A DNA stretch of 64,000 bases from Thermoleophilia bacterium (lineage in GTDB: Bacteria > Actinomycetota > Thermoleophilia > Miltoncostaeales > Miltoncostaeaceae): positions 1-64,000 of the forward strand of contig JANQPH010000011.1 of the NCBI GenBank assembly GCA_028285405.1. Reading direction: 5' to 3'. Below are positions 40,980 to 61,516 of this stretch, piece by piece. Under the pieces are notes generated by a model. The model was not told the origin of the DNA. It saw nothing but the letters and a program-made list of their open reading frames with translations, and made no database searches. How positions within the stretch are numbered: the first letter of the stretch is position 1; the number at the start of each line of letters is the position of its first letter. The position numbers and the translations under genes are program-made.

Positions 40980-41434
40980 ATGTATCAGCCGGTGCGCTCA
41001 GGCGGGCAGCGCAACGCCAGTGGCCGGGTCAGCTATAGCGACGGGAGCATCGAGAACGTCACCGACAACGCCGACTGCCTCGACGACGACCTCGGTCTCG
41101 TCGCTGGCACGTCGTGGCTGTTCGCCCGCGAGGAGTTCGACGGTGCGCTCGACTACCTGGTCGTTGACGAGGCCGGGCAGATCGCGCTCGCGGATGTCGT
41201 CGCGGCTGGTGCCGCGGCCCGGAACCTCATCATCCTGGGTGACCCGCAACAGCTTCGGCACGTGACCCAGGCCATCCATCCCGAGGGTGTGGGCGGCTCT
41301 GTACTCGAGCACGTGTTGGGCGAGGATGAGACGGTGCGGCCCGAGCGTGGGCTGTTCCTGCCGACGACATGCGGCCGATCTCGGGCCTCTCCGGGCTGGT
41401 CGAAGAAGCGGAGCGTCAGCGCGTCGACCTGTGA
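40980..41434 (+). pseudogene. Remnant of a TM0106-type nuclease/helicase gene
   Basis: The frame 40980-41362 encodes only the middle of an SF1 helicase: SWLFAREEF, then YLVVDEAGQIALADVV (Walker B) and NLIILGDPQQLRHVTQAIHP (motif III), ending at ERGLF. It matches the full enzyme at 55859-59302 at about half of the positions. After a frame jump near 41357-41363, ADDMRPISGLSGLVEEAERQ aligns with the very C terminus of that enzyme (VDDMVLIATLCAFVEYAEVV). The nuclease domains, motif I and about 200 residues of the second helicase half are missing. It is a decayed, diverged paralogue, not a recent copy. Confidence 0.8.
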
Positions 41435-41468
41435 GGAGCGCCGAGCCCGCCACTAGCCTCGGCTCGCC

Positions 41469-43466
41469 GTGACGGTCGAGACCCAGCTCGGAATGCTCGA
41501 AGCCGCCTTGGATGAGTGCGACCTCGAGTCCGCAGACGTGGCGCTTGAGGGCCTTCGTGCTGCCTGGCGCCGTGCCCCGGCCGAAGAGCGTCTCGGGATC
41601 GCGAGCCGTGTGGCCCCGCTCCGCGCGCGCCGTGACGATCTCGCCAGCGAGCCAGCGCGGGCCGAGTCCCAGCGCCATCGGGGTCTCGCTGTGGAGCCCC
41701 GTCCGCTGGCGAATGCACTCGAGGCGCTCGGGGTCTTGGAGCTTCGCCCAGGTCAGGCTGAGGCGATCCAGGCGGCGATGGACGGCCGGGACTGTCTGGC
41801 GATCATGCCGACCGGGTCGGGCAAGTCGCTCTGCTACATGGCGCCCGCGCTCGCCCTCGGCGGCCTCACGCTCGTGATCTCGCCGCTGATCGCGCTGATC
41901 GCGGACCAGCACCGGCGCTTGGTCGAGCGGGACGTCGCGTCGGTGATGCTCGCCGGCACGCTTAGCCTCGAGGAGAACCGTGAGGGGATTGCGCGAATCC
42001 GTCGAGGTGAGACCCGGATCGCGTTCTGTGCCCCCGAGCGACTCGGCTCCGGTGAGCTCCTGGCGGCCTTGCGGGCCAATCGGCTCGACCTCTTTGTCGT
42101 CGACGAAGCGCACTGCCTGGTCGAGTGGGGCGACGACTTCCGGCCCGAGTACCTGCGGCTCGCCGAGTGGCGGGACCAGCTCGGCGCTCGGGCGACGATG
42201 GCGCTGACCGCCTCAGCGACGAAGCCGGTGGCGGCGATGATCGAGTCCTCGCTCGGGCTGCGCGACGTCGAGCGCGTGCGGCTGAGCGTCGATCGTCCCA
42301 ACATCAGCTTCGAGGTCCACGTGAGCGAGGGAAAGGGCTCTCTCGCGCGCCGGCACCGGGCTCTTGCCGCGGCGCTTGCGGCCGAGGATTCGCGCCCAGC
42401 CATCGTCTACACGCGAACGCGACGCGACGCCGAGGAGCTTCCGGAGCGACTCTCGTCCGACGGGATCAACGCGACGGCGTACCACGCAGGGCTGGCCGAC
42501 GACGTTCGCCAGCGGGCGCACGACGGGTTCATGGCCGGGGACGTCGAGGTGATCTGCGCGACGAACGCGTTCGGGCTCGGGGTCGACAAGCCGGATATCC
42601 GGTCAGTCCTCCACTGGGGCCTGCCGGTCTCGATCGAGGGCTACTACCAAGAGGCCGGTCGCGCCGGCCGCGACGGGCGACCCGCCCGCGCGGCGCTCCT
42701 TGGTTCACCCGCCGACCTGCGGTTGCTCCGCCATTTGATCGACGAGTCGCGGATCCCCGTGGCGAGCGTCGAGCGGACCTTCAACCGAGTCGCTGCACGG
42801 GCCGGCGAGGCGGGGGAGTTCGAGGTCAGTCGGGAGGAGCTCGAGCGAAACGATCGGATGGCGATCGAGCTCGACATCGCCGTGCGGATCGGCGCGATCG
42901 TGCTCCGTCGCGGAGGGGGTGGGCTCGTCGGAGAGCTTCGGATCAGCTCGCTCGAGCCGCGTCATCGCTCGCTCGCGATGCGGGCCGCGAAGATGGCCGA
43001 GTCGCGTCGATGGGAGGCGTATCGGGCGATCCGTGACTTCGCGCTGACGCCCGGCTGTCCGCGCGCCAAGCTCCTTCGCCACTTTGACGATCCCGCCCGG
43101 TGCTCGGAGGACTGCGACGGAAGCGACTGCAACCTGCTCCCTCGTCTCGACGTCGCGCCCGCGACCAGGTCCTCGGCGAACCATCGACCGGCCGCGTCAC
43201 GTTCCCCAGCGGAGATCGGGGGCGAGGACGGGGCCCTCCTCGACGTCCTGAAGGCGTGGCGACGCGAACGTGCCGATGGCAAGCCCGCGTACACGGTGTG
43301 CAAGAACGCTGTTCTGCTCGAGATCATCGCCAGGCGGCCAACAGACCCGTCGGGCCTTGCCGAGATCCCCGGCGTCGGCGCGACCTTTCTGGAGCGGCAT
43401 GCAGAGGACTTGCTTGCCACGCTGGCCGACGAGTCGCTCATGACGACGGCATCGCGTAGCTGGTGA
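41469..43466 (+). CDS. RecQ-like superfamily 2 DNA helicase with HRDC-like end
   Basis: This 665-residue protein has a 75-residue N-terminal extra region. The RecQ core follows: Walker A Lys119 in PTGSGKSLCYMAPAL, SPLIALIADQ, DEAH box VVDEAHCLVEWGDDFRPEY (canonical RecQ has SQWGHDFRP), TASAT, YTRTRRDAEELPERL, ATNAFGLGVDKPDIR and YYQEAGRAGRDG. A zinc region (CPRAKLLRHFDDPARCSEDCDGSDC) and an HRDC-like C terminus (WRRERADGKPAYTVCKNAVL) complete it. It unwinds DNA in repair or defence. The GTG start is close to the stop of the fragment upstream. It heads the plus-strand island genes. Confidence 0.9.
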   Translation: MTVETQLGMLEAALDECDLESADVALEGLRAAWRRAPAEERLGIASRVAPLRARRDDLASEPARAESQRHRGLAVEPRPLANALEALGVLELRPGQAEAIQAAMDGRDCLAIMPTGSGKSLCYMAPALALGGLTLVISPLIALIADQHRRLVERDVASVMLAGTLSLEENREGIARIRRGETRIAFCAPERLGSGELLAALRANRLDLFVVDEAHCLVEWGDDFRPEYLRLAEWRDQLGARATMALTASATKPVAAMIESSLGLRDVERVRLSVDRPNISFEVHVSEGKGSLARRHRALAAALAAEDSRPAIVYTRTRRDAEELPERLSSDGINATAYHAGLADDVRQRAHDGFMAGDVEVICATNAFGLGVDKPDIRSVLHWGLPVSIEGYYQEAGRAGRDGRPARAALLGSPADLRLLRHLIDESRIPVASVERTFNRVAARAGEAGEFEVSREELERNDRMAIELDIAVRIGAIVLRRGGGGLVGELRISSLEPRHRSLAMRAAKMAESRRWEAYRAIRDFALTPGCPRAKLLRHFDDPARCSEDCDGSDCNLLPRLDVAPATRSSANHRPAASRSPAEIGGEDGALLDVLKAWRRERADGKPAYTVCKNAVLLEIIARRPTDPSGLAEIPGVGATFLERHAEDLLATLADESLMTTASRSW

Positions 43467-43527: not shown

Positions 43528-44229
43528 GTGAGGATCGTCACCTGGAACGTGCGCTGGGTCCTCGAACGCAGGTGGGAGCTGCTGGACCGCCTGCAGCCCG
43601 ACATCGCCGTGATCCCCGAAGCGCGACATTGGGCGCGAAGCGGCCTGCCGATTCCCGAGCCGCTCTCGCGCCCCGAGATCGGCGGCCGACTGATGGAGGG
43701 AGATCTCCTCGTCGAAGTGCGCCGTGGTTGGCGAATGGCGAGGGACGAGACCGCCGATGCCACGCTCGAGCGACACATCGTCGTGTCTGTGAGCGGTCCG
43801 GCAGAGTTCGACCTGGTCGCCCTCGTCGCTCGGCCCGATGGGAGCCGCCAGCGCCGCTATCTGCAGCGGATCGAGGCCATCATCGACGCAAACCGGCACC
43901 GAATCACCGCCGGACGCTGCCTCGTGGTTGGCGACTTCAACGTGGAACCGCGTCGCGGTGCAACTGACCACCGGGGCGAGTTCGTGGAGCTGATCGAGTC
44001 AATGGATCTGGTGAGTGCGTACCACGTCCATACGGGCGAGGACTTCGGTGAGGAGACACGGCCTACACATCACCACGTCTCCGGGAACGACTTCCACATC
44101 GACATGTGCCTGCTCCCGGCGAAGCTGGCATCGACAGTTCGATCCGTCGGGGTCGGCGATCCGGGTGGTTCTGACCACCGTCCGTTGATCGTCGACCTCG
44201 ACTGGGACGCAGCTCCTCTCTCGGACTAA
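43528..44229 (+). CDS. Endonuclease/exonuclease/phosphatase family enzyme
   Basis: This 233-residue metal-dependent hydrolase of the EEP fold has WNVRW (motif with the catalytic Asn), a metal-binding glutamate in VIPEARHW, GDFNV, the HIDMCLLP region and the terminal SDHRPLIVDLD with catalytic His. Members cleave phosphodiesters in DNA, RNA or lipids, so a nuclease is likely in this context. The start is GTG 43528, 61 bp after the RecQ-like gene. The length is near the minimal fold. Confidence 0.85.
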   Translation: MRIVTWNVRWVLERRWELLDRLQPDIAVIPEARHWARSGLPIPEPLSRPEIGGRLMEGDLLVEVRRGWRMARDETADATLERHIVVSVSGPAEFDLVALVARPDGSRQRRYLQRIEAIIDANRHRITAGRCLVVGDFNVEPRRGATDHRGEFVELIESMDLVSAYHVHTGEDFGEETRPTHHHVSGNDFHIDMCLLPAKLASTVRSVGVGDPGGSDHRPLIVDLDWDAAPLSD

Positions 44230-48483: not shown

Positions 48484-51400
48484 GTGGTGTTCTTCCAAGC
48501 GGCTCGTTCCGTAGGATCCTCGTCGGTGGATGCCAGCGTCGTGACGTCGGCGATCGACGAGAGGTTTGGCGCCTCGCAAGAGGCGCCTGACGCTGGCCCA
48601 CTCGGGCGCCCGAAGATCTGGCGGACACCTGTCGGGGTTGAGCTCGCGGTGGTAGGTGCTCCGACAGCGGCTGGTGGAGCAATGACCGACGCATGGCGAC
48701 GCCAGCGGCGCGGGCGTGCTACTCCGCTCCTCCTCTTCGTCGGGACGGACGACGCGCTGTTTGCCCTGGGTCCCGAGGGCACCCATCCACGGCCAACCGA
48801 GGTGGACTCGGCCCTACTCGGGACCCTCGACTTCCTCGCTGAGGAGACTGATCTGCAGCGGGCTGTTGAACGCGTTGCAGACGCCGTCACCGAGAATGCA
48901 GTTCAGGCCGATGCGCAGCCCGGCATTCGTCCCTCAGGGTTGTTCACACCGCATTATCTGTTCTCTCGACTCCCGCGCACGGCGAGTTGGCCAGAGCTCG
49001 AGGAGCGGGCGCCCAATCGCATCCCTGCAGATTGGGCCGGGCTCATGTCTGCGCTCGCGTATGACCTTCAAGAAGTCGACGACGGATACGTCGCAGTTCA
49101 TGGCGGGCAGGAGTTGGCGGTACTTCGGGCTCACGAGGATCATCGGGCGCTCGACTCGCCGATCGAGCAGCTCGATGATCTTCCATACCGACGCCTTGGC
49201 GAGCTGATGCGAAGGCACCGCCTGTCTTCGGGGCTGCTCGTCGCCGGGAGCACCATCCGACTGTTCGCCAGCGAGGGCACGACACGCCTACCTGAGCGAT
49301 ACCTCGAGTTCCGCTTGGACCGTCTGGAGTCGTCCGAGCGGCCATACCTCGGGATCCTTGCGCCAGGAACCCTCTCAGGCGAGCCCGAGCTCCAGCGGCT
49401 CCTCGTCGATGCCCGTCGCTACGGAGCAGAGCTCAAGGATGGCGTCGAAGAGCAGATCCGAGACGCCGCGTTGCCGGCTCTGGTCCGGGGCCTACTGCCG
49501 TTCGCCGAAGGCGACCCCGCCGATCCAGCTGTGAGGCAGGGCGTGTCGGATGCCGCTCTGACACTGCTATTCCGGCTCGTCTTCCTACTCTATGCAGAGT
49601 CCGCCGACTATCTGCCCGTTCGCTCGAGCCGCTACGAGGCGCACTCCATCCAGCGCCTGGCCGCTGACGCGCGTGAGGCGGAGAAGATGGGGTTCGACGC
49701 CACGGCGACCGGCCTCTGGGACGCGAGCCGCACCCTCGTCAACGCAATCCGTACCGGCAACACGACGTGGGGAGTTCCTGCGTACAACGGCGCACTGTTT
49801 GCGCCATCAGGTTTTCCTGGCGCGGCCTTCCTCGCCCGAGCGAGCCTCAGCGATGCCGAGCTCGGGCCTGCACTCGTTGCGCTCGCCTACGGCGCGGGGA
49901 ACGACCTCGACAAGGGTGGACCAGGGATCGACTGGGCCGGACTCGGGGTCGCCCAGATCGGTTCGATCTACGAAGGCTTGCTTCACCTTCGGTTGGCCTA
50001 TGCCGAGCATGATCTCGGCTACGACAAGAGCCACGACCGGTACCAACTCGCCAAGTCGGACGATGAGGTCGCCCAGCCCGCAGGGTCGTGCTTTCTCCTC
50101 AGCGAGAGCGGGGGTCGCAAGTCCGGTGGCGTCTTTTACACGCAGGAGCTCTTTGTCGACCATCTCGTTGCTGGTGCAATAGGCCCGCCGCTTGGGGACC
50201 ATCTCCAGAGCGTGCGTGAAATCGCGGCGCGGAATCCGGAGGCCGCGTCCGAAACCCTGCTCGACTTCGCAGTCGTCGACCCTGCGATGGGCTCCGGGCA
50301 TTTTCTTGTCGGGGCGCTTGACTTCCTCGCCGCGGAGATCGGCGCGTTCCTCCGTGAGGTACCCCTCAAGGGGATCAGCGAGCGCCTTGACGCCCTCCGG
50401 CGTTCCGCGGTAGTGGGCGATGCTCCTGAGCCGACTGACAGACAGCTTCTACGTCGGCTCCTGGTGAAGCACATGGTGTTCGGGGTTGATCGGTCCGAGA
50501 TGGCCGTCGAGCTAGCGAGGATCAGTCTCTGGTTGAGCAGCTTCGTCCCGGGGCTGCCGCTCAGCGTCCTCGAGGCGAACCTCAAGTTCGGCGACAGCCT
50601 GATTGGCGTCGACCGAATCGAGCGGATCACCGAGCGCGTCGGCCTACTCGCGCCACTCATCGAGCAGCCTCTCGGTGAGGCGGTGCGGCGGGTGGCGGAA
50701 GCCGCCGAGCACGAGGATTTGACGCTCGATGAGGTCGAGCAGACGCGTACCGCACTCGAGGCAGCTACTGCAGCTGCTGCTCCTGCGGGGCGGCTACTCG
50801 ACGCATATACGGCAATCGCGTTCGGCGCTACTGGTGCATCCGACTTCGTGGACGACGACTCGCGGGCTCGTTCCCTCATTTCTGGGGATGTGCAGGACGC
50901 GACGCCCAGCTTCGTGTCGATCGCAGAGCTTCGTCAGCAGCTCGCGTTTCTTCACTGGCCCCTTGCATTCCCTCGAGTCTTCGCTCGCGAGAACCCAGGC
51001 TTTGACGCCGTTGTCGGCAACCCGCCCTGGAACGAGATCACGGTAGAGCGGACGGGGTTCTTCATTCAGCACGACCCCGGTCTGGGCAGCGTTCGACAAG
51101 CTGAGAAGCGCGAAGCGCGGATTGCGGCGCTGGCTGAGCGTTTCCCTGAGCTGGAACGCGACTACGAAGAGGCCGTCGAGACGACTGCCCTACTGCGGAG
51201 TTTCTTTCGTTCGCCCAGCGGGGACTACGAGTTGCAAGGATCGGGGGACCTGGACCTGTATGAACTCTTCTGTGAGCGCTACGGGGCACTGCTTCGCGAT
51301 GGCGGTGGCTTAGGGGTCGTTCTCCCGCGCAGCGCTTTCTATATCGAGGGAACGGTGGGCTTCCGACACTGGCTGTTTAGGTCCGCCTCGCCCCGCCACA

Positions 51401-52491
51401 TCGACACCATCCTCAATGCTGGTCGGTGGGCGTTTGATATGGAGCCGAGGTACACGATCGCGCTTACGGTGTCCCGACGGGCGACACCTGCGACGGACCA
51501 GGTGATCGCGCTGTCGGGACCTCACTCAAATGAAGCCGCCTTTGTAGAGCGCTCGCCGGTTCCGGTGGCTCATGGGGCGCTTCGTCGTTGGACGAGGCCG
51601 CACAAGGCAAGGCCATCGGATCCGTCCTCCTGGGAGGTGCCCCTGCTTGCCAGCCCACCCGCTCGAGATCTCTACGACGCGCTCATGACGTTGCCTCGCT
51701 TCGACGAGGGCGGCGCCGGCGATTGGCGAGCCTTCGCCGCGACAGAATTCCATGTGAGCAACGATCGCGACTACATCCGCCCGCAAGGCGACGCCGAGGT
51801 TTGGACCGGACGCACCTTTGAGCAGTTCCAGCCATGGTTCGGCGACGTCGCCGGCTACTTCGACTTCGACGAGGGATGTGAACGTCTCGAGCGGAAGCGG
51901 CAAGGCTCAGATGTCTGGAAGCGTGCGTGGCCGGAGGCGCTCGGCGATCCGGCTACGTTGCCAGCACGGGGATACCGGGTTGCCTTCCGGGATGTGACCC
52001 GCGCATCAGACACGTGGACGGTGCGCGCCTGCACCATTCCGCCACAGACCTTTCTCACCAACAAGGCACCGTATCTCGTGCTGCCCGAGGGTGGACGTCC
52101 GGCCGGGGCGCTGCTCCTAGGTGTCATGAACTCGTTGGTCTTCAACTGGATGGCCCGCCGCATCGTCGAGATCAGCCTGAACTTCTTCGTTCTGAACATG
52201 CTGCGGGTGCCGGAGATCGCGCTTGATTCCACGCACGCAGAGGCCGTCATTACCCCTGCTGCTCGCCTCCAGGCAGTTCACGAGGACTATCGGGAATGGG
52301 CGGAGAGTCTGAATGTCGACTGCGGCCCGCTATCGGGCGAGGAGGCCGACGAACTCCGGAGAGGGCTCGAGGTCGCTGTGTTCCGCGCATACGGTCTTGG
52401 TGCTGACGAGCTTGATGTTGTCTTGGAGGACTTCACAGAGAGGGCCGTCACGCCTGAGGCTCGCGCCGCGTTGCGGCAGGGCCTCTCATGA
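48484..52491 (+). CDS. Large Eco57I/PglX-like adenine-specific DNA methyltransferase
   Basis: This 1335-residue protein has a long N-terminal region (about 1-590; SGLLVAGSTIRLFASEG, LEFRLDRLESSERPYLGILA) as in large type IIG/PglX-like enzymes. Methyltransferase motif I, VVDPAMGSGHFLVG, is at about 597-610, and motif IV, VVGNPPWNE, has Asn846. A specificity-like C-terminal part follows (AFRDVTRASDTWTVRACTIPP, NSLVFNWMARRIVEISLNFFV). It should methylate adenine N6 in a target motif. No PD-(D/E)XK core is obvious, so cutting is presumably left to partners. The GTG 48484 start is weakly supported; ATG 48682 is an alternative. The helicase start overlaps its stop by 4 bp (ATGA). Confidence 0.88.
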   Translation: MVFFQAARSVGSSSVDASVVTSAIDERFGASQEAPDAGPLGRPKIWRTPVGVELAVVGAPTAAGGAMTDAWRRQRRGRATPLLLFVGTDDALFALGPEGTHPRPTEVDSALLGTLDFLAEETDLQRAVERVADAVTENAVQADAQPGIRPSGLFTPHYLFSRLPRTASWPELEERAPNRIPADWAGLMSALAYDLQEVDDGYVAVHGGQELAVLRAHEDHRALDSPIEQLDDLPYRRLGELMRRHRLSSGLLVAGSTIRLFASEGTTRLPERYLEFRLDRLESSERPYLGILAPGTLSGEPELQRLLVDARRYGAELKDGVEEQIRDAALPALVRGLLPFAEGDPADPAVRQGVSDAALTLLFRLVFLLYAESADYLPVRSSRYEAHSIQRLAADAREAEKMGFDATATGLWDASRTLVNAIRTGNTTWGVPAYNGALFAPSGFPGAAFLARASLSDAELGPALVALAYGAGNDLDKGGPGIDWAGLGVAQIGSIYEGLLHLRLAYAEHDLGYDKSHDRYQLAKSDDEVAQPAGSCFLLSESGGRKSGGVFYTQELFVDHLVAGAIGPPLGDHLQSVREIAARNPEAASETLLDFAVVDPAMGSGHFLVGALDFLAAEIGAFLREVPLKGISERLDALRRSAVVGDAPEPTDRQLLRRLLVKHMVFGVDRSEMAVELARISLWLSSFVPGLPLSVLEANLKFGDSLIGVDRIERITERVGLLAPLIEQPLGEAVRRVAEAAEHEDLTLDEVEQTRTALEAATAAAAPAGRLLDAYTAIAFGATGASDFVDDDSRARSLISGDVQDATPSFVSIAELRQQLAFLHWPLAFPRVFARENPGFDAVVGNPPWNEITVERTGFFIQHDPGLGSVRQAEKREARIAALAERFPELERDYEEAVETTALLRSFFRSPSGDYELQGSGDLDLYELFCERYGALLRDGGGLGVVLPRSAFYIEGTVGFRHWLFRSASPRHIDTILNAGRWAFDMEPRYTIALTVSRRATPATDQVIALSGPHSNEAAFVERSPVPVAHGALRRWTRPHKARPSDPSSWEVPLLASPPARDLYDALMTLPRFDEGGAGDWRAFAATEFHVSNDRDYIRPQGDAEVWTGRTFEQFQPWFGDVAGYFDFDEGCERLERKRQGSDVWKRAWPEALGDPATLPARGYRVAFRDVTRASDTWTVRACTIPPQTFLTNKAPYLVLPEGGRPAGALLLGVMNSLVFNWMARRIVEISLNFFVLNMLRVPEIALDSTHAEAVITPAARLQAVHEDYREWAESLNVDCGPLSGEEADELRRGLEVAVFRAYGLGADELDVVLEDFTERAVTPEARAALRQGLS

Positions 52492-55400
52492 CCTCGTCCT
52501 CCGATGCGACTCGACCGACGCTCGTCGACAACTTCGAGGACGGGTGGTCGCACGAGGCGGCGTTAGCGGCGCTGTTGGAGCGGGTCCCCGATCAGGAACT
52601 GTGCGTCGCGACCGGATACGTCAGCCTGGTCGGCCTTGACACACTCGCGCAAGTCGTCGATGAACCTCGCACCGTCCGAGTCCTGATCGGCGCCGTCTCA
52701 CGGCCCGATGAGGTGAACGTCGGTGTTCGGCTCCGGGTCGGGGCACAGTTTCGCGAGCAAGACGAGTCGCTGAGGCGGGAGCGTGACCGCGACAACTTCC
52801 CGCCAGCGCGACGGGCACGGCTTGAGCGAGCCCGCGCATTCCTTCAGCGCGAGGACGTCGAGGTCCGGCGCTACACACCGCAGTTTCTCCACGGCAAGAC
52901 TTTCATTGTTGGCGACGAGGTCACCCTGTGCGGATCGGCCAACCTCACCGCCGGGGGACTCAAGTCGAACCTGGAGCTTAGCCTGGTCGACTACAACGTC
53001 GGACCGACGAAGCTCTTTCGAAGCTGGTTTGACGCAAGGTGGTCAGAGGAAACCGAAGAGCTCACGGAGCAGCTAGTCGAGCTGCTCGCACCGCCCCCAG
53101 GCGATGCTCTGCCCTACGACGTGTTTCTTCGCGCTCTGGATGAGTTCTTCGGCGCGGAACCCGAGGATGAGCCGACGACGGCATCGAGGCTCGAGCTGGC
53201 TCGGTTTCAGCGGGATGGCTACGCACGCGCTGCGGCGATCGCTGACCGCTATGGCGGCGTGGTCTACGCCGACGGCACCGGTCTGGGCAAGACGTACATC
53301 GGTCTGCGCTTCGTTGAGGAGGCAGTCGAGAAGCGCAGAGAGCCGGCGGTGGTGATCGTCCCGGGGCAGCTCAAGCGGAGCTTTTGGGGCGCCGCTCCGG
53401 CTGAGCAGCAACTGCACTTCGATGTCGTCACTCATGACGAGCTTGCCCAGGATGTGCAGCTAGCCGAAGGTGTGTCGAGCAGACACCTGCTGCTCGACAA
53501 GGACCACTATCGCCTTGTCGTTGTCGACGAGGCGCAGGCATTCAGGAATCCGCAGACTGCACGACACCAAGCCCTGCTCCGGCTGATCGGGGGCAGTCAG
53601 AAGCGGGTCGTCCTGATGAGCGCGACCCCCGTCAACAACTCGCTGTGGGACCTCTATCACCTCATTTCGACATTCGCTGCTTCGGACAATGCGTTCGCCG
53701 AGTCCCCCCTGTTCATCCCAAGCCTTGAGCGCTTCTTCGTTCGATCCGGCGCGAACGATCCGAGCCAACTCTCCCCGTCTCGACTTTTCTCGCTCCTCGC
53801 CCGCGTAGCGGTTGGTCGTCCGCGGACGTTCGTCGAGCGCTACTACGAGGGCGACGAGATCGCGGGTCAGCCCGTGCGTTTCCCCTCTCCTGAGTACCAC
53901 ACAAGCCGCTATCAGCTTGACGAGGTCTACGGCGGGCTCTTCGAGGCAATCGACGACGTGCTTTCCCGACTCCGGTTTGCCCGGTACCAGCCGGCGCGCT
54001 ACCTGCGCCCCGAGGTGGTGCGGAACTTGCCTGTCGAAGAGCAAAAAGCTGCGCACGCCGCTGCCGCACGTGAACGATCTCTTGCCGGCCTGCTCCTCTC
54101 CGGGCTGCTCAAGCGATTCGAGTCGTCTGCCGCCGCAGCCCGGAAGACGGTAGAGGCGCTGATCGCGTCGCACACCGAGTTCCTGGCTGCGATCGAGCGC
54201 GGCCTTGTTCCCACCGCCGAGGAGCTCGGCGAGCTCGTCGATGGTGACGATGGGACCCTTGGCGCGCTGATGGACGCACTCCCCTCCAACTCGACGCGGC
54301 ACGCGCGCAATTACCGCGACGAGCTTGCCGCCCACACTTATGAGGACCTCAAGCTGCTGCAGGAGCTGCTGGAAGAGATCCGCGAGCCCGAGCCTGGTCG
54401 GGACCCGAAGGTGGCTGCCCTGGTGGAGATCCTCGGATCGGTGCCCGAGGGAGAAAAGGTGGTCGTGTTCGCAAGCTTCGCGGACACTGTCAACTACATC
54501 GATGCTGCGCTCTCGGACGACTCTTCGCTATCAGCCAGCCGAGACCGGATCACGATCGCCGGGCGGGACACGACTCCTGAGCAGCGCGTGCGGGCGACGG
54601 CGCGTTTCGCACCCGATACGTCTGGACTTGCCGGCGTCGGGCTTCCGCCTGGTGAGACGGAGGTCGACCTCCTCGTTTCGACTGATGTCTTGAGCGAAGG
54701 ACAGAACCTCCAGCAGGCATCGACGCTGGTCAACTTCGACCTGACCTGGAATCCGCAGCGAATGGTCCAGCGGAATGGCCGCATCAATCGCTTGGGAGGA
54801 CAGCCCACCATCCACCTCCACACCCTCGCGCCCGACGACGCAGAGCTCGAGCGGTTGCTACGCCTCGAGGCTCGCATTCGAGACAAGGTCCAGGCGGCCA
54901 ATGCCGCTCTTGGGATGGAGTCTCGGATCCTCGACATCGACCCTGAGGAGCGCGTGTTCAGTGATGTCAATCCGTTCGGAGGCGAGGGTTCCGACGCAGA
55001 TTCTGCGACGGCGGAGTTGCGCAAGGAGTTGCAGGCTGAGGCCGCTGCTGGGGAGGGCCTAGACATCGAGATCGAGGAGGCGGCTGGAGCGGCAGCCGAG
55101 CGCTATCGGCTCGAGCTCAAGCGCGCCCGAAAGGAGGGAGATCTCGACCGCGTACGGCAGCTTCCCTTCGGCATCGGCTCGTGCTTCAGCCAGGGAGCGG
55201 GGATCCCGTCGCGAGGCACCCCCGGTGTGTTCTTCGCGACTCGAGTTCACGGCGAGCGGGTCTGGCGGTACGTCACGCGCGGCGAGGTGCGGAGGGACGA
55301 GCTCCCGATGCTGCAGGCGATTGAGCCGGCGCGTGCGACTCGACCCGAGGAGTACGAGACCTCCGTCGTACTCGACGCCTGGGAACTCGCCGAGGCCGAC

Positions 55401-55760
55401 ATCCTTCGTGAGTTCAACGAGGAGCCGGTCGACGAGCCGACGATTCCACCAGCGCAGGCGTGGGCTCTGGAACTCCTTGCAGGGGTGAGTCTTCCGGGTG
55501 ATCAGCAGCGCGAAGCTGCCGCGTCTCTGCGTGTGGGGCGTCGCCATTCAGTTGTGAGGGCACTGGTCGTGATCCGCCGTCGGCTCGACGGAAACGAGAT
55601 CGATCGCTTCGAGGCAGCGCAGGAGGTCGCGGGGGTCGTAGATGACTTCGGACTGCGACCGACCGAGCCGGTCGAGATTGAGCGGCGGCACATCAATGCG
55701 GACGACATCGAGGTGGTCTGCTACTGCGTCGTCCGTCCGCCCGGGGGCGACACGGAGTAA
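52488..55760 (+). CDS. SNF2-family helicase with N-terminal PLD-like nuclease domain
   Basis: In this 1090-residue protein, residues about 15-210 are a phospholipase-D-like domain with the HKD motif (His135-x-Lys137 in FLHGKTFIVGDEVTLCGSANL, SNLELSL). The helicase core follows: Lys268 in ADGTGLGKTYIGLRF, DEAQ in VVVDEAQAFRNP, SATPVNNSLWDLYHL, then the second half with VVFASFADTVNYID, STDVLSEGQNLQQ and QRNGRINRLGG. One HKD is visible, so the nuclease would need to dimerise. It overlaps the methyltransferase by 4 bp. The pairing of a large adenine methylase with such a helicase resembles class 1 DISARM (drmMI/drmD) but no drmA, drmB or separate drmC was found. Confidence 0.85.
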   Translation: MTSSSDATRPTLVDNFEDGWSHEAALAALLERVPDQELCVATGYVSLVGLDTLAQVVDEPRTVRVLIGAVSRPDEVNVGVRLRVGAQFREQDESLRRERDRDNFPPARRARLERARAFLQREDVEVRRYTPQFLHGKTFIVGDEVTLCGSANLTAGGLKSNLELSLVDYNVGPTKLFRSWFDARWSEETEELTEQLVELLAPPPGDALPYDVFLRALDEFFGAEPEDEPTTASRLELARFQRDGYARAAAIADRYGGVVYADGTGLGKTYIGLRFVEEAVEKRREPAVVIVPGQLKRSFWGAAPAEQQLHFDVVTHDELAQDVQLAEGVSSRHLLLDKDHYRLVVVDEAQAFRNPQTARHQALLRLIGGSQKRVVLMSATPVNNSLWDLYHLISTFAASDNAFAESPLFIPSLERFFVRSGANDPSQLSPSRLFSLLARVAVGRPRTFVERYYEGDEIAGQPVRFPSPEYHTSRYQLDEVYGGLFEAIDDVLSRLRFARYQPARYLRPEVVRNLPVEEQKAAHAAAARERSLAGLLLSGLLKRFESSAAAARKTVEALIASHTEFLAAIERGLVPTAEELGELVDGDDGTLGALMDALPSNSTRHARNYRDELAAHTYEDLKLLQELLEEIREPEPGRDPKVAALVEILGSVPEGEKVVVFASFADTVNYIDAALSDDSSLSASRDRITIAGRDTTPEQRVRATARFAPDTSGLAGVGLPPGETEVDLLVSTDVLSEGQNLQQASTLVNFDLTWNPQRMVQRNGRINRLGGQPTIHLHTLAPDDAELERLLRLEARIRDKVQAANAALGMESRILDIDPEERVFSDVNPFGGEGSDADSATAELRKELQAEAAAGEGLDIEIEEAAGAAAERYRLELKRARKEGDLDRVRQLPFGIGSCFSQGAGIPSRGTPGVFFATRVHGERVWRYVTRGEVRRDELPMLQAIEPARATRPEEYETSVVLDAWELAEADILREFNEEPVDEPTIPPAQAWALELLAGVSLPGDQQREAAASLRVGRRHSVVRALVVIRRRLDGNEIDRFEAAQEVAGVVDDFGLRPTEPVEIERRHINADDIEVVCYCVVRPPGGDTE

Positions 55761-55858
55761 GTGTCAACGCTTGATGGCGGGACAATCGGCTGCTCAGCGA
55801 AGTGCGGCGCCGTGACCTACTAAGGACAACTGATGCAACTGGCCGAAGACTCATCGGC

Positions 55859-58800
55859 ATGAACCGAGAGTTCGCGCCGGAGCCGGAGGAAGGGGCGCCG
55901 CCTCGGCTGCTGACGCCGTCGAAGATCACGGCATGGCTCGACTGCCCCCACTACCTGACCCTGAAGCACGGGGGTGAGGGTGGCGGGGAACCGCGGGCGA
56001 GCTACACGGTGGGGTCGTTCGCTCGCCTACTGCAAGACAAGGGGCTCGAGCACGAGGCAGCGGTCGAGGCGGCCTACGTGGATTCCGGGGCACGTGTTCA
56101 CCGTGTCGACGCCAAGCAGCCCGACGAGACGTTCGCGCAATGGGCCGATCGTGTGGCGAGCGAGCTCGGGACCGACGCCGACGTGCTGTTCCAGATGCCG
56201 CTGGTCCACAACGGGATCCGCGGTGTCGCCGACTTCTTGGAGCGGGTGATCGAACCCGACTCCGGAGGGGTTCGGTGGGAGCCGGTTGACGCCAAGCTCG
56301 CGCGGCGCAGTGCCGCGCCCGGGCACGTGCTTCAGCTCTGCTTCTACGCGGAGGCACTTGGGGCCGCGACCGGTGAGGCTCCGCACCAACTCCAAGTGTC
56401 TTTGGGGTCCGGGGCCACGGACGCCGTCGGGTTCGAGGAGGTCCGCCCATATTGGGACCGTCTCCGAGGTCAGCTTGCAGCGGTGATGTCATCGGGCCCA
56501 GATGGTCGGACCCGACCCGAGCCCTGTGACCACTGCGGGTTCTGCGAGTTCCAACCCAGCTGCGAGCAGGTGTGGCGAGACGAGGACTCTCTCGTCTACG
56601 TGGCCGGCATTCGCAAGACGGATCGTGTCGCCCTCGAGGCGGCCGGCGTGTCCACGATGGCGGCGCTTGCCGATCGGGCGGGACCGGTTGGCGACCTGCG
56701 GGACGAGCGCCTCGAACAGCTGCAGGTCCAGGCCCAGCTTCAAGTGCAGGCGCGTGCCGCTCCAGAGAGGCCGCCGCCGATCCGATTGATCCCGGCGGGG
56801 GAGCATCCCGAGTGGGGCCACGGGATGGAACGGCTCCCGGCTCCCGACGATGGCGACGTCTTCCTCGACTTCGAGGGCCACCCGTTTTGGCGCCCGGATC
56901 GAGGCCTGTTCTTCCTGTTCGGCTACATCGCCCAAGACGACGCCGGGGCATGGCAGTACCACCAGGAGTGGGCGCACGACGAGGCCGAGGAGCGTGACCG
57001 GGTCCGCGAGCTGGTGCGCTTCATCCGGGATCGACGCGCGGCACATCCTGGGATGCACGTGTACCACTACAACCACACGGAGCGCTCGGCCCTGGAGACA
57101 CTTGCGGCCGAGCACGGGGTAGTCGAGCGGACGCTCGCCTCGCTCGTGGAGAGCGGCGTCTTCGTCGACCTCCTGGTCGTGGTTCGCAACGCGATGCAGG
57201 TCGGCGTCGAGTCCTACAGCCTCAAGAACCTCGAGGTGCTGACCGGCTATGAGCGCGACCACGAGATCGACAAGGGCGCCGGTGCTGTCGTCGCCTACAA
57301 CCAGTACACGCATGACCACAACGACGAGCACTTGGCCGCGATTGCCGCCTACAACGAGGACGACGTTCGGGCCACCCGTGCTCTTCGCGACTGGCTGATC
57401 GAGCAGCGCCCGAGCGGGATCGACTGGCGCGTCGATCCGGAGGCCAAGGCCGAAGACGAGGACGAGATCGACGCACTTGTCGAAGCTCTCGCGTCCCATC
57501 CGGACGGGTCACCTGAGCACCTCATGTCGGGCCTCCTCGGATACTGGCGCCGCGAGTGGCGCGCGTACATCGCGCCGCTGATCGGTCTCCTCGGCAGTGA
57601 CCTCGATGATCTACTTGCCGACGCCGATGTCCTCGCCGGTCTTGCGGACCCACAGCGGTTCGGCCGTACAACGCGCACCGGTAGGCCGGCGAAGTGGCCT
57701 GGCCTCCGGCTCTCGTTCCCGGCGCAGGAACTCGGCCGTGCCTTCGCCGAGGACTCCCCACCATCCGTGATCTACACGACACCGGATGGCCTCCTGGGGT
57801 TCGTCGAGGTCGACCGACTGGACATCGCCAACGGTGAGATCGATCTCGTTTGGACGGGCAAGGCCCAGGAGCTCGGCGCCGCGCCCAGCGCAGTGGTGCT
57901 CAACGAATGGGTGTCTCCGAGCTCGAAGTGGGACACCTTGCTCGATCTTGCTCGCCAAGTGCTCGACCCAACGGCGAACGGAGCGCCCAACCCGGTCACG
58001 ATGGCACTGCTCGAAGCCGCCCCACCTGTGTTCGCCGATCGATCCGGCATGGACAGCCTCTCCGACGGCGTTGACGAGCTCGCAGACCTCGCCTGCCATC
58101 TGCAGTCGAGCGTGCTCGGAGTACAAGGACCACCAGGCACAGGCAAGACCTTCCGCGGTGCACACATCGCAAAGGCACTCGTGGCCGAGGGCAAGCGGGT
58201 CGGGATCATGGCCATGAGCCACCACGCCATCGACAACTTCCTCGAGGAGATCGTCGACGTGTTCGCCGCCGACCCATCGGAGGAACTGCGCGCGATCCGA
58301 AGGAGGGGGGCGCCCCCCGATGGGGGACTGTCGGGTGTGACGTACACCACAAAGAACGACGCCCTTGCCCGCGAGGAGTTCAACGTTGTCGCGGCAACGG
58401 CATGGCAGTTCGCGGGTCGCGATCTCCGCGCTGCCCCGGTCGATGTGCTTCTGATCGACGAGGCGGGTCAGCTTGCCCTGATCGATGCGGTCGTCGCCTC
58501 GATGGCAGCCGAAAGCGTGGTGCTACTCGGTGACCCGCTCCAGCTCCCGCAGGTGGCTCAGGCGAAGCATCCTGGCGACAGCGGAGCCAGCGCCCTCGGT
58601 CACCTGCTCGGTGACCAGGTCACCATCTCGTCCGATCGAGGCGTCTTCATTGAGGAGACCCGGCGGATGCATCCGGATCTCTGTCGGTTCATCTCGGAAC
58701 GCATCTACGAGGGCCGGCTGTCGAGCCACGTCGATTGCGAGCGCCAGTCAACGGGTCACGGCACTGGCCTGCGCTGGATTCGGGCCGAGCATTCGGGGTG

Positions 58801-59302
58801 CTCCACCGAGTCGGACGTCGAGGCGACGATCGTTGCGAACCACGTCCGGTCGCTACTCGGCATCAACTGGGTCGACAAGTCGGGCGCCACGCGACATATC
58901 GAGCCCAGCGACATCATGGTCGTGGCTCCGTACAACGATCAAGTGCGACTCCTCCGCGAGTACCTCGACGCCGACCCGGCGACCCGCAGCGTCCAGGTGG
59001 GTACCGTCGACAAGTTCCAGGGGCGCCAAGCGCCCATCGTGTTCTTCACGATGGCGAGCTCGAGCGCCGAAGACATGCCGCGGGGAACGGAGTTCCTCTT
59101 CTCTCGGAACCGGCTCAACGTCGCCGTGAGCCGCGCCCAGTGCCTCGCCTACCTCGTCTGTACCGAGGATCTGCTTTCGAGCCGCGCTCGCACTGTGGAC
59201 GACATGGTCCTGATCGCGACACTCTGCGCGTTTGTCGAGTACGCAGAGGTCGTCAGCTATCCGGCACCGGCTGCTGCGGCATCCCGACGACCCGGTCGGT
59301 AG
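55859..59302 (+). CDS. TM0106-family RecB-like nuclease/DEDD exonuclease/SF1 helicase
   Basis: The ATG at 55859 (MNREFAPEPEE) is used. The 1147-residue protein shows three modules. Residues about 20-260 are RecB-like with GVADFLERV and VDAKLARR (catalytic acid and lysine), and a Cys cluster C223, C226, C229, C235 (CDHCGFCEFQPSC) likely holding an iron-sulfur or zinc site. About 330-540 is an RNase H-like DEDD exonuclease (Asp337 and Glu339 in FLDFEGHPFW; NEDDVRATRALRDWL). About 740-1147 is an SF1 helicase (Lys763 in GPPGTGKTF, LLIDEAGQLALIDA, LLGDPLQLPQV, QGRQAPIVFFT). Such proteins may process DNA ends in defence. It begins 98 bp after the PLD-helicase gene and probably belongs to the same unit. 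Confidence 0.85.
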   Translation: MNREFAPEPEEGAPPRLLTPSKITAWLDCPHYLTLKHGGEGGGEPRASYTVGSFARLLQDKGLEHEAAVEAAYVDSGARVHRVDAKQPDETFAQWADRVASELGTDADVLFQMPLVHNGIRGVADFLERVIEPDSGGVRWEPVDAKLARRSAAPGHVLQLCFYAEALGAATGEAPHQLQVSLGSGATDAVGFEEVRPYWDRLRGQLAAVMSSGPDGRTRPEPCDHCGFCEFQPSCEQVWRDEDSLVYVAGIRKTDRVALEAAGVSTMAALADRAGPVGDLRDERLEQLQVQAQLQVQARAAPERPPPIRLIPAGEHPEWGHGMERLPAPDDGDVFLDFEGHPFWRPDRGLFFLFGYIAQDDAGAWQYHQEWAHDEAEERDRVRELVRFIRDRRAAHPGMHVYHYNHTERSALETLAAEHGVVERTLASLVESGVFVDLLVVVRNAMQVGVESYSLKNLEVLTGYERDHEIDKGAGAVVAYNQYTHDHNDEHLAAIAAYNEDDVRATRALRDWLIEQRPSGIDWRVDPEAKAEDEDEIDALVEALASHPDGSPEHLMSGLLGYWRREWRAYIAPLIGLLGSDLDDLLADADVLAGLADPQRFGRTTRTGRPAKWPGLRLSFPAQELGRAFAEDSPPSVIYTTPDGLLGFVEVDRLDIANGEIDLVWTGKAQELGAAPSAVVLNEWVSPSSKWDTLLDLARQVLDPTANGAPNPVTMALLEAAPPVFADRSGMDSLSDGVDELADLACHLQSSVLGVQGPPGTGKTFRGAHIAKALVAEGKRVGIMAMSHHAIDNFLEEIVDVFAADPSEELRAIRRRGAPPDGGLSGVTYTTKNDALAREEFNVVAATAWQFAGRDLRAAPVDVLLIDEAGQLALIDAVVASMAAESVVLLGDPLQLPQVAQAKHPGDSGASALGHLLGDQVTISSDRGVFIEETRRMHPDLCRFISERIYEGRLSSHVDCERQSTGHGTGLRWIRAEHSGCSTESDVEATIVANHVRSLLGINWVDKSGATRHIEPSDIMVVAPYNDQVRLLREYLDADPATRSVQVGTVDKFQGRQAPIVFFTMASSSAEDMPRGTEFLFSRNRLNVAVSRAQCLAYLVCTEDLLSSRARTVDDMVLIATLCAFVEYAEVVSYPAPAAAASRRPGR

Positions 59303-59388: not shown

Positions 59389-61200
59389 CTAGAGCGTGTC
59401 GGGCTCCGCTTGGGCCAAGGAGCCGGGCTCGCGTCCAAGGACGGCCAGCAGGCGATCACGGATCCGTTCGCGCCTTGCATCGTAGAAGTCCAGGAAGCCC
59501 GACGCGTCCTCTGGCACATCGAGCATGTCGTTCTGCTCGAGATAGCCGCGGAGCCGATCGCGATCCGCAAAGGTGCTCCGAGCCCAGGCGAGCGGCATTC
59601 GGTCGCTCTTACCGATGTTCTCTCCGCCGGGTAGGAGCTGGAGATTCCCAAGACCGTCTCGTGCCACCCTGACGATTCTCTCCACTTGTGCCTCGTCGTA
59701 GCCGGCGTCGCGTAGGTGGTCGCGGCGCAGAATCGACCGCGGAAAGATGTGGTCGACGTGGAAGGCGCCCGCTGGATCGACATGGCTGTAGAGGATCGAA
59801 AGAAGGGAGTAGGTGTCGGGCCTGCCGTAGCTCGAGTCGGAGAGCTCTTCCACCAGCTCCCGATCGAACCGCAGGGACTTGCCCATGCTCGCCATCGCGT
59901 CCTCGATGGCATCGCTTGGGAACCCGGCAGCCCCATGGTCATCGATGGTGCGACGAAGCCTGCCGAGCACGGTGTCGAGTCCAGAACCGAACACGCCCGG
60001 CATGAGGAGTGCTCGCACCGTCCAGTCTCGGATCCGTGACCGATCACCCGCCGTCGTTGGAGAGGCGAGATACCGCTCGTCGAGCGCTCGACGGTGCAGG
60101 TAGTACGCAACGGGGATCAGGACCATCTTCGCGTCGATGTTGTCCCGGGACAGCCCGAACGACGCGAAGAGCTCCGCGGCCAGGTGAAGTCGCGCGGAGA
60201 TTTCGTCCCAGGCGTCCTCGAGCTGCTGCATGTTGCCTCGGTTGAAGACCTCAGCCCGAAAGCCGACGTCTGAGATCCCGGCGAGCACGAGCCCGGCCTT
60301 GAGGATGTGGTCTCGCTCGAACGCGAAGCCGGGCGCCACAGCATTCACGCGGCGGAGCGTCGCCGGGATCTCCTCCCGCGCGTCCTTCTTCTCCCACTGG
60401 GCGGTGGCGACGCTCATCAGCAGGTCCGATTTCGAGAGCGGCTGACCCTGGCTGTTGACGCGGATGAAGATGTCCAGCACCCGGTCGAGACTCTCCGTCG
60501 ACTCGGTGAAGTAGCTCAAGTGGCGCTGCTCGTGGACGGTTCTCCAGAGCTTCCAGAGCGTGTCGAACGCGCTCGGATGGCCGGCGAGGCCTGCGTCGGC
60601 GAGAAAGGCGTTGATGTGGGGCGGCGCGTTTGAGTCCGAGCCCCAAGCCAAGATCGTCGAGACCTGAAACCACAGAGGGCCCGACTCGTCCTCGTTTTCT
60701 TCCTGCGCGCGTGCTGGCTCAAGGAAGTCGAACCGAAAGAACTGATCCTCGTACTTATCCGTCCCCAGCCCCGGCTCAGCCGCGATGTCGAGATAGAGAT
60801 ACTTGGTCGGGTAGCTCTGCGGGTTGTTGACGCGCCGCCACTTCGTGCGTGCTGCGTGACTTCCGCGAAGGCCGATGTTCAGAGCTGTTAGACGCTGCTG
60901 CCCGTCGAGGACGGCAATTCTGTCCTCAGGGGGGAGACTGGCGTGGGGAGGGCAGCCGGGCCTCTCGAGCTCGTGGTAGTCGAGTACGAAGTCGTACCAG
61001 CGGTAGCCATCCCCGTGCTCCTTGTCGACCCTCCAGTAGAGGAGCGAGCTGATCGGGTAGTCGCGCATGAGGGAATCGAACAGCGAGCAGATGCGCGATG
61101 GTGACCACACGAACTCTCGCTGGATTGCCGGGAGCACGTATCGCCGCGAGGCGATCGCATCGAGCGCATCGGCGATTGTCTCGTCGTTGTAGTTCGGCAT
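59389..61200 (-). CDS. DUF262/HNH protein of the GmrSD type
   Basis: The ATG at 61200 (MPNYNDETIADAL) gives a 603-residue protein. The N-terminal DUF262 (GmrS-like) domain has ParB-like IAVLDGQQRLTALNIGL and FVWSPSRICSLFDSL. The C-terminal part has a DUF1524/HNH-type nuclease with DPAGAFHVDHIFPRSILRR and DGLGNLQLLPGGEN. GmrSD restricts modified phage DNA using nucleotides, with both halves sometimes fused, as here. It converges with the TM0106 gene and fits a type IV-like restriction role. The frame extends further 5' without any homology. Confidence 0.87.
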   Translation of the reverse strand: MPNYNDETIADALDAIASRRYVLPAIQREFVWSPSRICSLFDSLMRDYPISSLLYWRVDKEHGDGYRWYDFVLDYHELERPGCPPHASLPPEDRIAVLDGQQRLTALNIGLRGSHAARTKWRRVNNPQSYPTKYLYLDIAAEPGLGTDKYEDQFFRFDFLEPARAQEENEDESGPLWFQVSTILAWGSDSNAPPHINAFLADAGLAGHPSAFDTLWKLWRTVHEQRHLSYFTESTESLDRVLDIFIRVNSQGQPLSKSDLLMSVATAQWEKKDAREEIPATLRRVNAVAPGFAFERDHILKAGLVLAGISDVGFRAEVFNRGNMQQLEDAWDEISARLHLAAELFASFGLSRDNIDAKMVLIPVAYYLHRRALDERYLASPTTAGDRSRIRDWTVRALLMPGVFGSGLDTVLGRLRRTIDDHGAAGFPSDAIEDAMASMGKSLRFDRELVEELSDSSYGRPDTYSLLSILYSHVDPAGAFHVDHIFPRSILRRDHLRDAGYDEAQVERIVRVARDGLGNLQLLPGGENIGKSDRMPLAWARSTFADRDRLRGYLEQNDMLDVPEDASGFLDFYDARRERIRDRLLAVLGREPGSLAQAEPDTL

Positions 61201-61210
61201 ACGGTGGACG

Positions 61211-61516
61211 CTATCGAGGGAGCGGGACGAGCGGAGGAGGTGAGGCCCTCTCCGGCCTCCGCGGCTCTCGACGCGTTTCTCGGCGCCTGGCACTCGATGC
61301 GACCACTGCCGTTGAGTTGGCGCATCCCGGCGACTGGGTCGTGGTGCGTCGGCCGACCATTGGGTTGACAGAGACAGACGTGGGTGGTCGCGGACCTTCC
61401 TCTGCAGCCCTGCGGTAGAGCTCGACGACCCTCTCGAGAACACGCGCTCGCCAGTCGGCGAGGGTCTCCTCGGGGATCCGGGACTTGCCCACCGTAATGC
61501 TGCGCGCGTCTCTCAT
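61211..61516 (-). pseudogene. Truncated paralogue of the 62416-62805 gene
   Basis: The start MRDARSITVGKSRI, followed by EETLADWRARVLERVVELYRR, matches the gene at 62416-62805 (MRDERSITVDKLRLI, ALVGWRERVLERVEELYQQ). About 14 residues are missing between the two blocks, and everything after GPRPP is unrelated. The upstream DNA is also duplicated (see repeat). It is likely inactive or novel only by truncation. Confidence 0.65.

What the first reader, a model, noticed from the sequence alone, without database searches (positions are those of the whole stretch)
48484..59302. Possible new defence cassette: large adenine methylase + PLD-SNF2 helicase + TM0106 nuclease/helicase
The methyltransferase (NPPW, DPAMGSGHF) and PLD-SNF2 helicase overlap by 4 bp, and the TM0106 gene follows 98 bp later. 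The pairing resembles class 1 DISARM (drmMI/drmD), but drmA, drmB and separate drmC are absent. A helicase carrying its own HKD nuclease could replace them. Placement in an island full of nucleases fits a defence role. The joint function is inference.
Basis: partly seen in the sequence, partly recalled or inferred. Interest (0 to 1): 0.85.

Follow-up and report, generated by a model that had tools for sequence, protein, structure and literature searches.

The report
Two-gene ATP-driven restriction system, sometimes phase-variable

Summary
The three genes exist as described, but the unit has two genes. M (48484-52491), a large N6-adenine-type methyltransferase, overlaps H (52488-55760), a PLD(HKD)-SNF2 helicase, by ATGA. 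M lies beside H in nearly every high-scoring relative with enough upstream sequence, on plasmids and chromosomes of Actinomycetota, haloarchaea, Gemmatimonadota, Planctomycetota, Pseudomonadota and Acidobacteriota. The window's H sits in a fully supported clade of 22 such helicases. The TM0106 gene neighbours none of the others.

It is not DISARM, ARMADA or a DUF499 'BR' system: the genome (97.6% complete) has no DUF1998/MZB or DUF499 gene. PADLOC files M as 'type IIG', but its N-terminal domain keeps no conserved acidic or lysine residue.

M core and H co-diverge (r=0.92). M's target-recognition domain (TRD) does not, and H shows no matching variable region. Best reading: an ATP-dependent restriction-modification system whose single TRD, in M, serves both activities.

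Unexpected: in 18 of 52 loci examined the linker before the TRD carries non-triplet repeats (e.g. (CAGC)17, (CT)14, G13). Two near-identical loci differ in repeat length there, and some loci carry two TRD cassettes, suggesting phase-variable specificity. The window copy is intact and repeat-free. Defence is inferred, not shown.

The parts
48484..52491 (+). M: 1335-aa DNA adenine-type methyltransferase with C-terminal target-recognition domain; modification and (inferred) specificity subunit
   Evidence: PADLOC PDLC03620 382 bits; relative L041 matches the same profile over its full length at 989 bits
48484..49473 (+). M N-terminal domain (residues 1-330): weakly PD-(D/E)XK-like in a predicted model, no conserved D, E or K across 18 members; probably a dead nuclease or interaction domain
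   Evidence: alignment; model pLDDT 82; weak Foldseek hits to Hjc resolvases, SPARDA and BpuSI, none E<0.001
50278..50304 (+). M motif I DPAMGSGHF (SAM binding)
51019..51030 (+). M motif IV NPPW (amino-methyltransferase catalytic motif, invariant in 7 aligned relatives)
51626..51805 (+). Linker between M core and TRD: the position that carries frameshifting repeats in 18 of 52 loci; repeat-free and in frame here
51631..52443 (+). M target-recognition domain (residues about 1050-1320), the module that evolves independently of the rest
52488..55760 (+). H: 1090-aa PLD(HKD)-SNF2 helicase; restriction motor and nuclease (inferred)
   Evidence: tree
52641..53042 (+). PLD nuclease domain with one HKD-type site (HGKTFIVGD...GSANLT, residues 135-154)
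   Evidence: Pfam PF13091, 44 bits; invariant residues
53280..53294 (+). Walker A GLGKT
53526..53537 (+). Walker B / motif II DEAQ
54768..54791 (+). Helicase motif VI QRNGRINR
55802..59302 (+). TM0106-family RecB-like nuclease + RNase_H_2 + SF1 helicase protein; co-directional neighbour, NOT part of the conserved unit
   Evidence: beside no other M-H pair; relatives in the class lie elsewhere
59389..61443 (-). GmrSD/DUF262 protein, possible accessory type IV restriction gene; weak homologues near five other M-H loci
   Evidence: PF03235 95 bits

Best explanation
A two-gene, ATP-dependent restriction-modification system. M methylates adenine in a short motif chosen by its C-terminal TRD, so host DNA is marked. 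H docks on M (or on an M-DNA complex) at an unmarked motif, its SNF2 motor translocates along the duplex, and paired HKD domains of two H chains cut the DNA, as in SauUSI and the CglI/NgoAVII enzymes. Shown here: the two genes form a conserved, horizontally spread unit; the catalytic motifs of both are conserved; the recognition module varies independently only in M; no third gene is conserved. Inferred: complex formation, translocation, cleavage, the N6-adenine product and the anti-phage role. In several lineages the TRD is joined to M through a repeat tract of non-triplet units, so slippage should switch the TRD on, off or (where two TRD cassettes lie in tandem) possibly over. Losing the TRD is safe for the host only if H depends on the same TRD, which supports the shared-TRD model.
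For: (1) M directly upstream of H in six plasmids and in nearly all high-scoring H loci with enough upstream sequence (one exception, L192); large N6-MTases also beside 24 of 25 more distant HKD-SNF2 helicases (the exception's contig ends at H) and upstream in a sister clade. (2) 22 of 50 pairs overlap by exactly 4 bp. (3) The pair helicases are one clade, SH-aLRT 100, including the window. (4) Distances of M core and H motor correlate at r=0.92 and M core with H C-terminus at 0.90, but TRD with H motor only at 0.44 and TRD with M core at 0.63. (5) HKD, Walker A/B, motif VI, MTase motifs I and IV conserved. (6) Own genome lacks DUF499 and MZB genes. (7) Hinge repeats in 18 of 52 loci; loci L169 and L170 differ by 18 substitutions in 8529 bp over M-H and by three indels, all in repeats. 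(8) Precedents: PLD+SF2 restriction (PMC7913695, PMC5737866); a single MTase TRD setting both methylation and defence in BREX (PMC11341690).
Against: No experiment. M-H contact was not modelled. H's C-terminal model was poor (pLDDT 68, no significant matches), so a recognition or reader domain there is not excluded. The distance correlations partly reflect shared descent of an operon. Most repeat-bearing loci are draft assemblies of one class (Acidimicrobiia), where tract lengths can be mis-assembled, and most assembled copies read as OFF. The single-chain PLD-SF2 enzyme SauUSI is modification-dependent, so H might in principle target modified DNA.
Confidence: 0.7

Rival explanations
1. Three-gene cassette: M, H and the TM0106 nuclease-helicase act together, the third gene replacing missing DISARM parts.
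For: Same strand, 41-98 bp gap; TM0106 carries nuclease and helicase domains.
Against: No TM0106 homologue beside any other M-H pair, including the nearest relatives L039, L040, L057 and L193-L198. In G043 the pair lies at 2.21 Mb and TM0106 at 1.41 Mb.
Confidence: 0.06
2. A reduced or diverged DISARM / ARMADA / DUF499 (BR, Hma) system.
For: M hits DrmMI and H hits DrmD profiles. Type-2 BR helicases have the same HKD-SNF2 order and work with an N6-MTase (PMC12839542).
Against: No MZB/DUF1998 or DUF499 gene in the window's genome, and no DUF499 in 25 of 26 further genomes or records with related HKD helicases. The pair clade is separate from the no-PLD helicases, of which L086 is HmaA.
Confidence: 0.12
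3. M is a self-contained type IIG restriction enzyme and H a separate accessory helicase.
For: PADLOC calls M 'REase_MTase_IIG' at 382 bits, relative L041 at 989 bits; weak PD-(D/E)XK-like fold in the N-terminus.
Against: No conserved D, E or K in residues 1-330 across 18 members; M and H are adjacent throughout the sample; a functional-looking nuclease site is conserved in H.
Confidence: 0.07
4. Exclusion without cleavage, or mainly epigenetic regulation: M-H acts BREX-like or as a phase-variable regulator, with the PLD domain structural or sensory.
For: BREX uses an MTase as sole specificity factor (PMC11341690); repeat-switched methyltransferases regulate genes elsewhere (PMC8125046).
Against: HKD residues are invariant in the aligned pair helicases, which is hard to explain without catalysis; the helicase partner is kept throughout the sample.
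Confidence: 0.15

Closest known systems
Type-2 BREX-Related (BR) systems, Rakesh & Krishnan 2026 (PMC12839542)
   Same: Helicase with N-terminal HKD nuclease and SNF2 motor paired with an N6-adenine MTase; same proposed logic of marking self and cutting the rest
   Different: Defined by a DUF499 ATPase and usually DUF3780; no third gene recurs here, and DUF499 is absent from the window's genome
DISARM class 1 (DrmD + DrmMI + DrmA/B/C)
   Same: SNF2 helicase plus large adenine MTase, defence setting
   Different: No DrmB-type DUF1998 gene in the genome and no DrmA or separate DrmC found nearby; the nuclease is fused to the SNF2 protein
ARMADA (PMC12458937)
   Same: RapA/SNF2-type helicase plus PglX-like MTase pair
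   Different: Requires a YprA-family helicase with DUF1998, absent here; no HKD domain is described in its SNF2 protein in the passages read
CglI / NgoAVII (PMC4267653, PMC5737866)
   Same: ATP-dependent restriction by a PLD nuclease plus an SF2 motor, with a separate MTase
   Different: Nuclease and motor are separate proteins and the nuclease carries its own B3 recognition domain; here nuclease and motor are fused and the only variable recognition module found is in M
SauUSI (PMC7913695)
   Same: N-terminal PLD nuclease fused to an SF2 motor; dimer via the nuclease; translocates, then cuts
   Different: Single protein with an SRA reader that attacks 5mC DNA; here an MTase partner with a TRD suggests attack on unmodified DNA
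Type III and type ISP R-M
   Same: One TRD used for methylation and restriction; type III mod genes are often repeat-switched
   Different: From general knowledge, they use other nuclease and motor families; repeats lie before the TRD here, near the gene start in modS
PbeABCD / CxC-ABC systems (PMC10853773)
   Same: HKD fused to an SF2 helicase, sometimes with a DNA methylase
   Different: Centred on a CxC-ABC ATPase and a DndE homologue; no such third gene recurs beside the pair here

Membership tests
DISARM class 1 | DrmA/DrmB core (helicase plus DUF1998 protein) | tested here: not met
   No MZB/DUF1998 (PF09369) match in the whole genome; no DrmA or DrmB homologue among scanned neighbours
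DISARM class 1 | DrmD + DrmMI as best family matches | tested here: not met
   M best hit is REase_MTase_IIG (382 vs 213 bits DrmMI), H best is C3a139 (146 vs 100 bits DrmD); NCBIfam DrmD 117 bits against cut-off 610
DUF499 BR / Hma system, Type 2 | DUF499 ATPase in the locus | tested here: not met
   No PF04465 in own genome; on the six plasmids one weak match, about 83 kb from the pair; none in 25 of 26 other genomes/records
DUF499 BR / Hma system, Type 2 | N-terminal HKD + SNF2 helicase and N6-MTase | tested here: met
ARMADA | YprA-family helicase with DUF1998 | tested here: not met
BREX | PglZ, BrxC and MTase core | not tested
   PglZ/BrxC models not run on the genome; only sub-threshold PglX matches for M (30-32 bits vs cut-offs 500-900)
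Type IIG R-M | Active nuclease and MTase in one chain | tested here: not met
   No conserved D/E/K in residues 1-330 of M; sequence inference only, no assay
ATP-dependent R-M (functional class) | Motor ATPase motifs plus nuclease plus MTase in one operon | tested here: met
ATP-dependent R-M (functional class) | Methylation-blocked, ATP-driven cleavage | not testable with these tools
   needs biochemistry
Mokosh (for gene 3) | Full-length MkoA match with its partner genes | tested here: inconclusive
   MkoA 139 bits over part of the protein (best stretch residues 854-1134) only; partner genes not searched

The most novel reading that the evidence does not exclude
A widespread, unnamed type of R-M system: one adenine MTase and one PLD-SNF2 motor-nuclease sharing a single TRD in the MTase, in which several lineages place slippage-prone repeats exactly at the MTase-TRD joint and some add alternative TRD cassettes. 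A population would then switch both its DNA mark and its restriction target together, without endangering cells that switch off.
Probability: 0.45. Interest if true: 0.78.

Novelty: new variant of a known kind. Interest (0 to 1): 0.63.

Why it matters
HKD-SNF2 helicases with a large MTase beside them are common (38 of 397 sampled genomes of this phylum carry an HKD-SNF2-type match), yet one database files the MTase alone as type IIG. Recognising the pair as one system would correct annotations, give a very small DNA-targeting defence with motor and nuclease in one chain, and offer a test of how one recognition domain directs both marking and cutting. If the repeats work as they look, target choice is switched at a domain joint rather than by turning a whole gene on or off.

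Tried and rejected
TM0106 as a third component: rejected, never linked. DISARM, ARMADA and DUF499 BR membership: rejected on missing core genes. I expected the H-then-M clade (L058-L085) to be Type-2 BR; no DUF499 was found in the genomes tested, so that idea was dropped. I first read the split MTases as a separate 'S subunit' gene; the non-triplet repeats at each break made phase variation the better reading. GmrSD/DUF262 as a core component: rejected, weak homologues in only a few loci. H C-terminal structure search gave nothing usable. A 77-row mixture-model tree did not finish; a 59-row LG+G4 tree did. Literature searches found no description of the bare pair, but the library lacks most subscription papers and REBASE was not searchable.

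Full report
WHAT IS THERE. The window is contig C26 of a 2.4-Mb, 97.6%-complete genome in a phylum that, judged from shared kinship groups and named relatives, is Actinomycetota. Three long plus-strand ORFs lie at 48484-52491, 52488-55760 and 55802-59302. The first (M, 1335 aa) carries an Eco57I-type methylase domain, DPAMGSGHF and NPPW. The second (H, 1090 aa) has PLDc_2, SNF2 and Helicase_C domains. The third (1166 aa) is a TM0106-family RecB-like nuclease with an RNase_H_2 domain and an SF1 helicase. M and H overlap by ATGA.

THE UNIT HAS TWO GENES. tblastn of M and of H against plasmids returned the same six records with the two genes adjacent: Euzebya, Rhodococcus, Paenarthrobacter, Mycobacterium, Halorubrum and Halalkalicoccus, three of them with the ATGA overlap as annotated. 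A genome-wide scan and a phylum survey gave many more. Where a high-scoring H has enough upstream sequence, M is normally upstream, whole or split; one locus with upstream sequence (L192) gave no M match. More distant HKD-SNF2 helicases also sit beside a large MTase, downstream in a broad bacterial clade (24 of 25 loci have the MTase in the locus, the last ends at a contig edge) and upstream in a sister clade. In a tree of 59 helicases the pair members, including the window, are one side of a branch at SH-aLRT 100; the nearest relatives are L039 and L040, and archaeal plasmid copies nest among bacterial ones, so the unit moves horizontally. TM0106 homologues lie beside none of the other pairs; relatives of that gene in the class lie elsewhere, in G043 about 0.8 Mb from the pair.

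WHAT IT IS NOT. The window's genome has no MZB/DUF1998 gene, hence no DrmB or YprA-type helicase, and no DUF499 gene. Profile scores agree: M is closest to PADLOC PDLC03620, labelled type IIG, and H to C3a139 'HKD+Snf2', both ahead of DISARM models. The type IIG label is doubtful. M's N-terminal 330 residues may have a PD-(D/E)XK-like fold (weak matches only) but keep no conserved acidic or lysine residue in 18 members, while a conserved nuclease site sits in H.

HOW IT PROBABLY WORKS. Pairwise distances of 19 complete pairs show M core and H motor diverging together (r=0.92), and M core with H C-terminus (0.90), but the TRD following neither well (0.44 with H, 0.63 with M core). The recognition module is therefore exchanged within an otherwise stable pair, and H has no region that varies in the same way. 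The simplest reading is that M's TRD sets both the mark and the restriction target, as shown for PglX in BREX (PMC11341690) and known for type III and ISP enzymes. PLD nucleases driven by SF2 motors are established in SauUSI and CglI/NgoAVII (PMC7913695, PMC5737866). Complex formation, translocation, cleavage and defence remain inference.

AN UNEXPECTED FEATURE OF THE FAMILY. In several relatives M is broken at the same place, the linker just before the TRD, and each such break carries a repeat whose unit is not a multiple of three: (GTCC)7 with (GACC)4 in L043, (CAGCACC)5 in L044, (CAGC)17 in L045, G13 in L046, (GATACTC)4 in L049. Fetching 30 more regions raised this to 18 of 52 loci whose M core end is present, with few such tracts elsewhere in M or H. 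Four of these loci (L173, L175, L179, L196) read through the repeat, that is, are ON. Two near-identical loci, L169 and L170, differ over M-H by 18 substitutions in 8529 bp and by three indels, all in repeats: G11/G9, CT14/CT11 and G12/G11. Five loci hold two tandem TRD cassettes 59-73% identical, typically with a G tract near the junction (L074 contains assembly artefacts, and L169 and L170 are near-copies). Three members of the window's own subclade (L194, L195, L196) carry hinge repeats; the window does not. This looks like phase variation of target recognition. Limits: most such loci are draft assemblies from one class that I sampled on purpose, so 18 of 52 is not a prevalence, and draft assemblies can misjudge tract length. 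L046 (Pseudomonadales) and L049 (Thermoanaerobaculia) are independent lineages. The design makes sense if H is harmless without the TRD, which adds indirect support to the shared-TRD model.

NOVELTY. The parts are known kinds. HKD-SNF2 helicases working with N6-MTases are published within DUF499 BR systems (PMC12839542), and HKD-SF2 helicases within CxC-ABC/Pbe systems (PMC10853773). I found no description of the stand-alone pair, of its breadth, or of repeats at the TRD joint, within an open-access library that lacks many papers. I rate it a new variant of a known kind: an ATP-dependent R-M system with motor and nuclease fused and recognition left to the MTase.

Noticed in passing
L043:8286-8329, L044:220-254, L045:6756-6823, L046:9073-9085, L049:8450-8477, L173, L175, L178, L179, L184, L189, L195 and others: Simple repeats with non-triplet units at the joint between MTase core and TRD, most leaving the TRD out of frame: probable phase variation.
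   Followed up: yes
L169, L170, L177, L187, L074: Two tandem TRD cassettes 59-73% identical downstream of one MTase core, typically with a G tract near the junction; possible specificity switching.
   Followed up: partly
window 40980-41456 (+): 158-aa ORF resembling part of the SF1 helicase of the TM0106 protein (77 bits), just upstream of a RecQ-like gene: probably a remnant.
   Followed up: no
window 41469-43466 (+): RecQ-family helicase with HRDC domain; also scores strongly against PADLOC DpdF, which is probably only RecQ similarity.
   Followed up: partly
window 43528-44229 (+): Endonuclease/exonuclease/phosphatase-family protein.
   Followed up: no
window 59389-61443 (-): GmrSD_N/DUF262 protein convergent to the cassette; weak homologues near M-H pairs in L029, L048, L159, L163 and L180, the L048 copy with a RAMA domain. 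Possible auxiliary type IV gene.
   Followed up: partly
L043:9124-9900: RAMA-domain protein between the MTase TRD and the helicase; possible reader of methylated DNA.
   Followed up: no
L166 (G043:C1, about 1.40-1.42 Mb): A TM0106-family gene about 5 kb from a DUF499 gene in a relative, so TM0106 proteins may be general defence-island residents.
   Followed up: no
L062:13080-16310, L067:13126-16833, L073:12907-16464, L080:13087-16614: A second MTase family (PADLOC PDLC03596, also labelled type IIG) directly downstream of HKD-SNF2 helicases in diverse bacteria: the same pairing in reverse order.
   Followed up: partly
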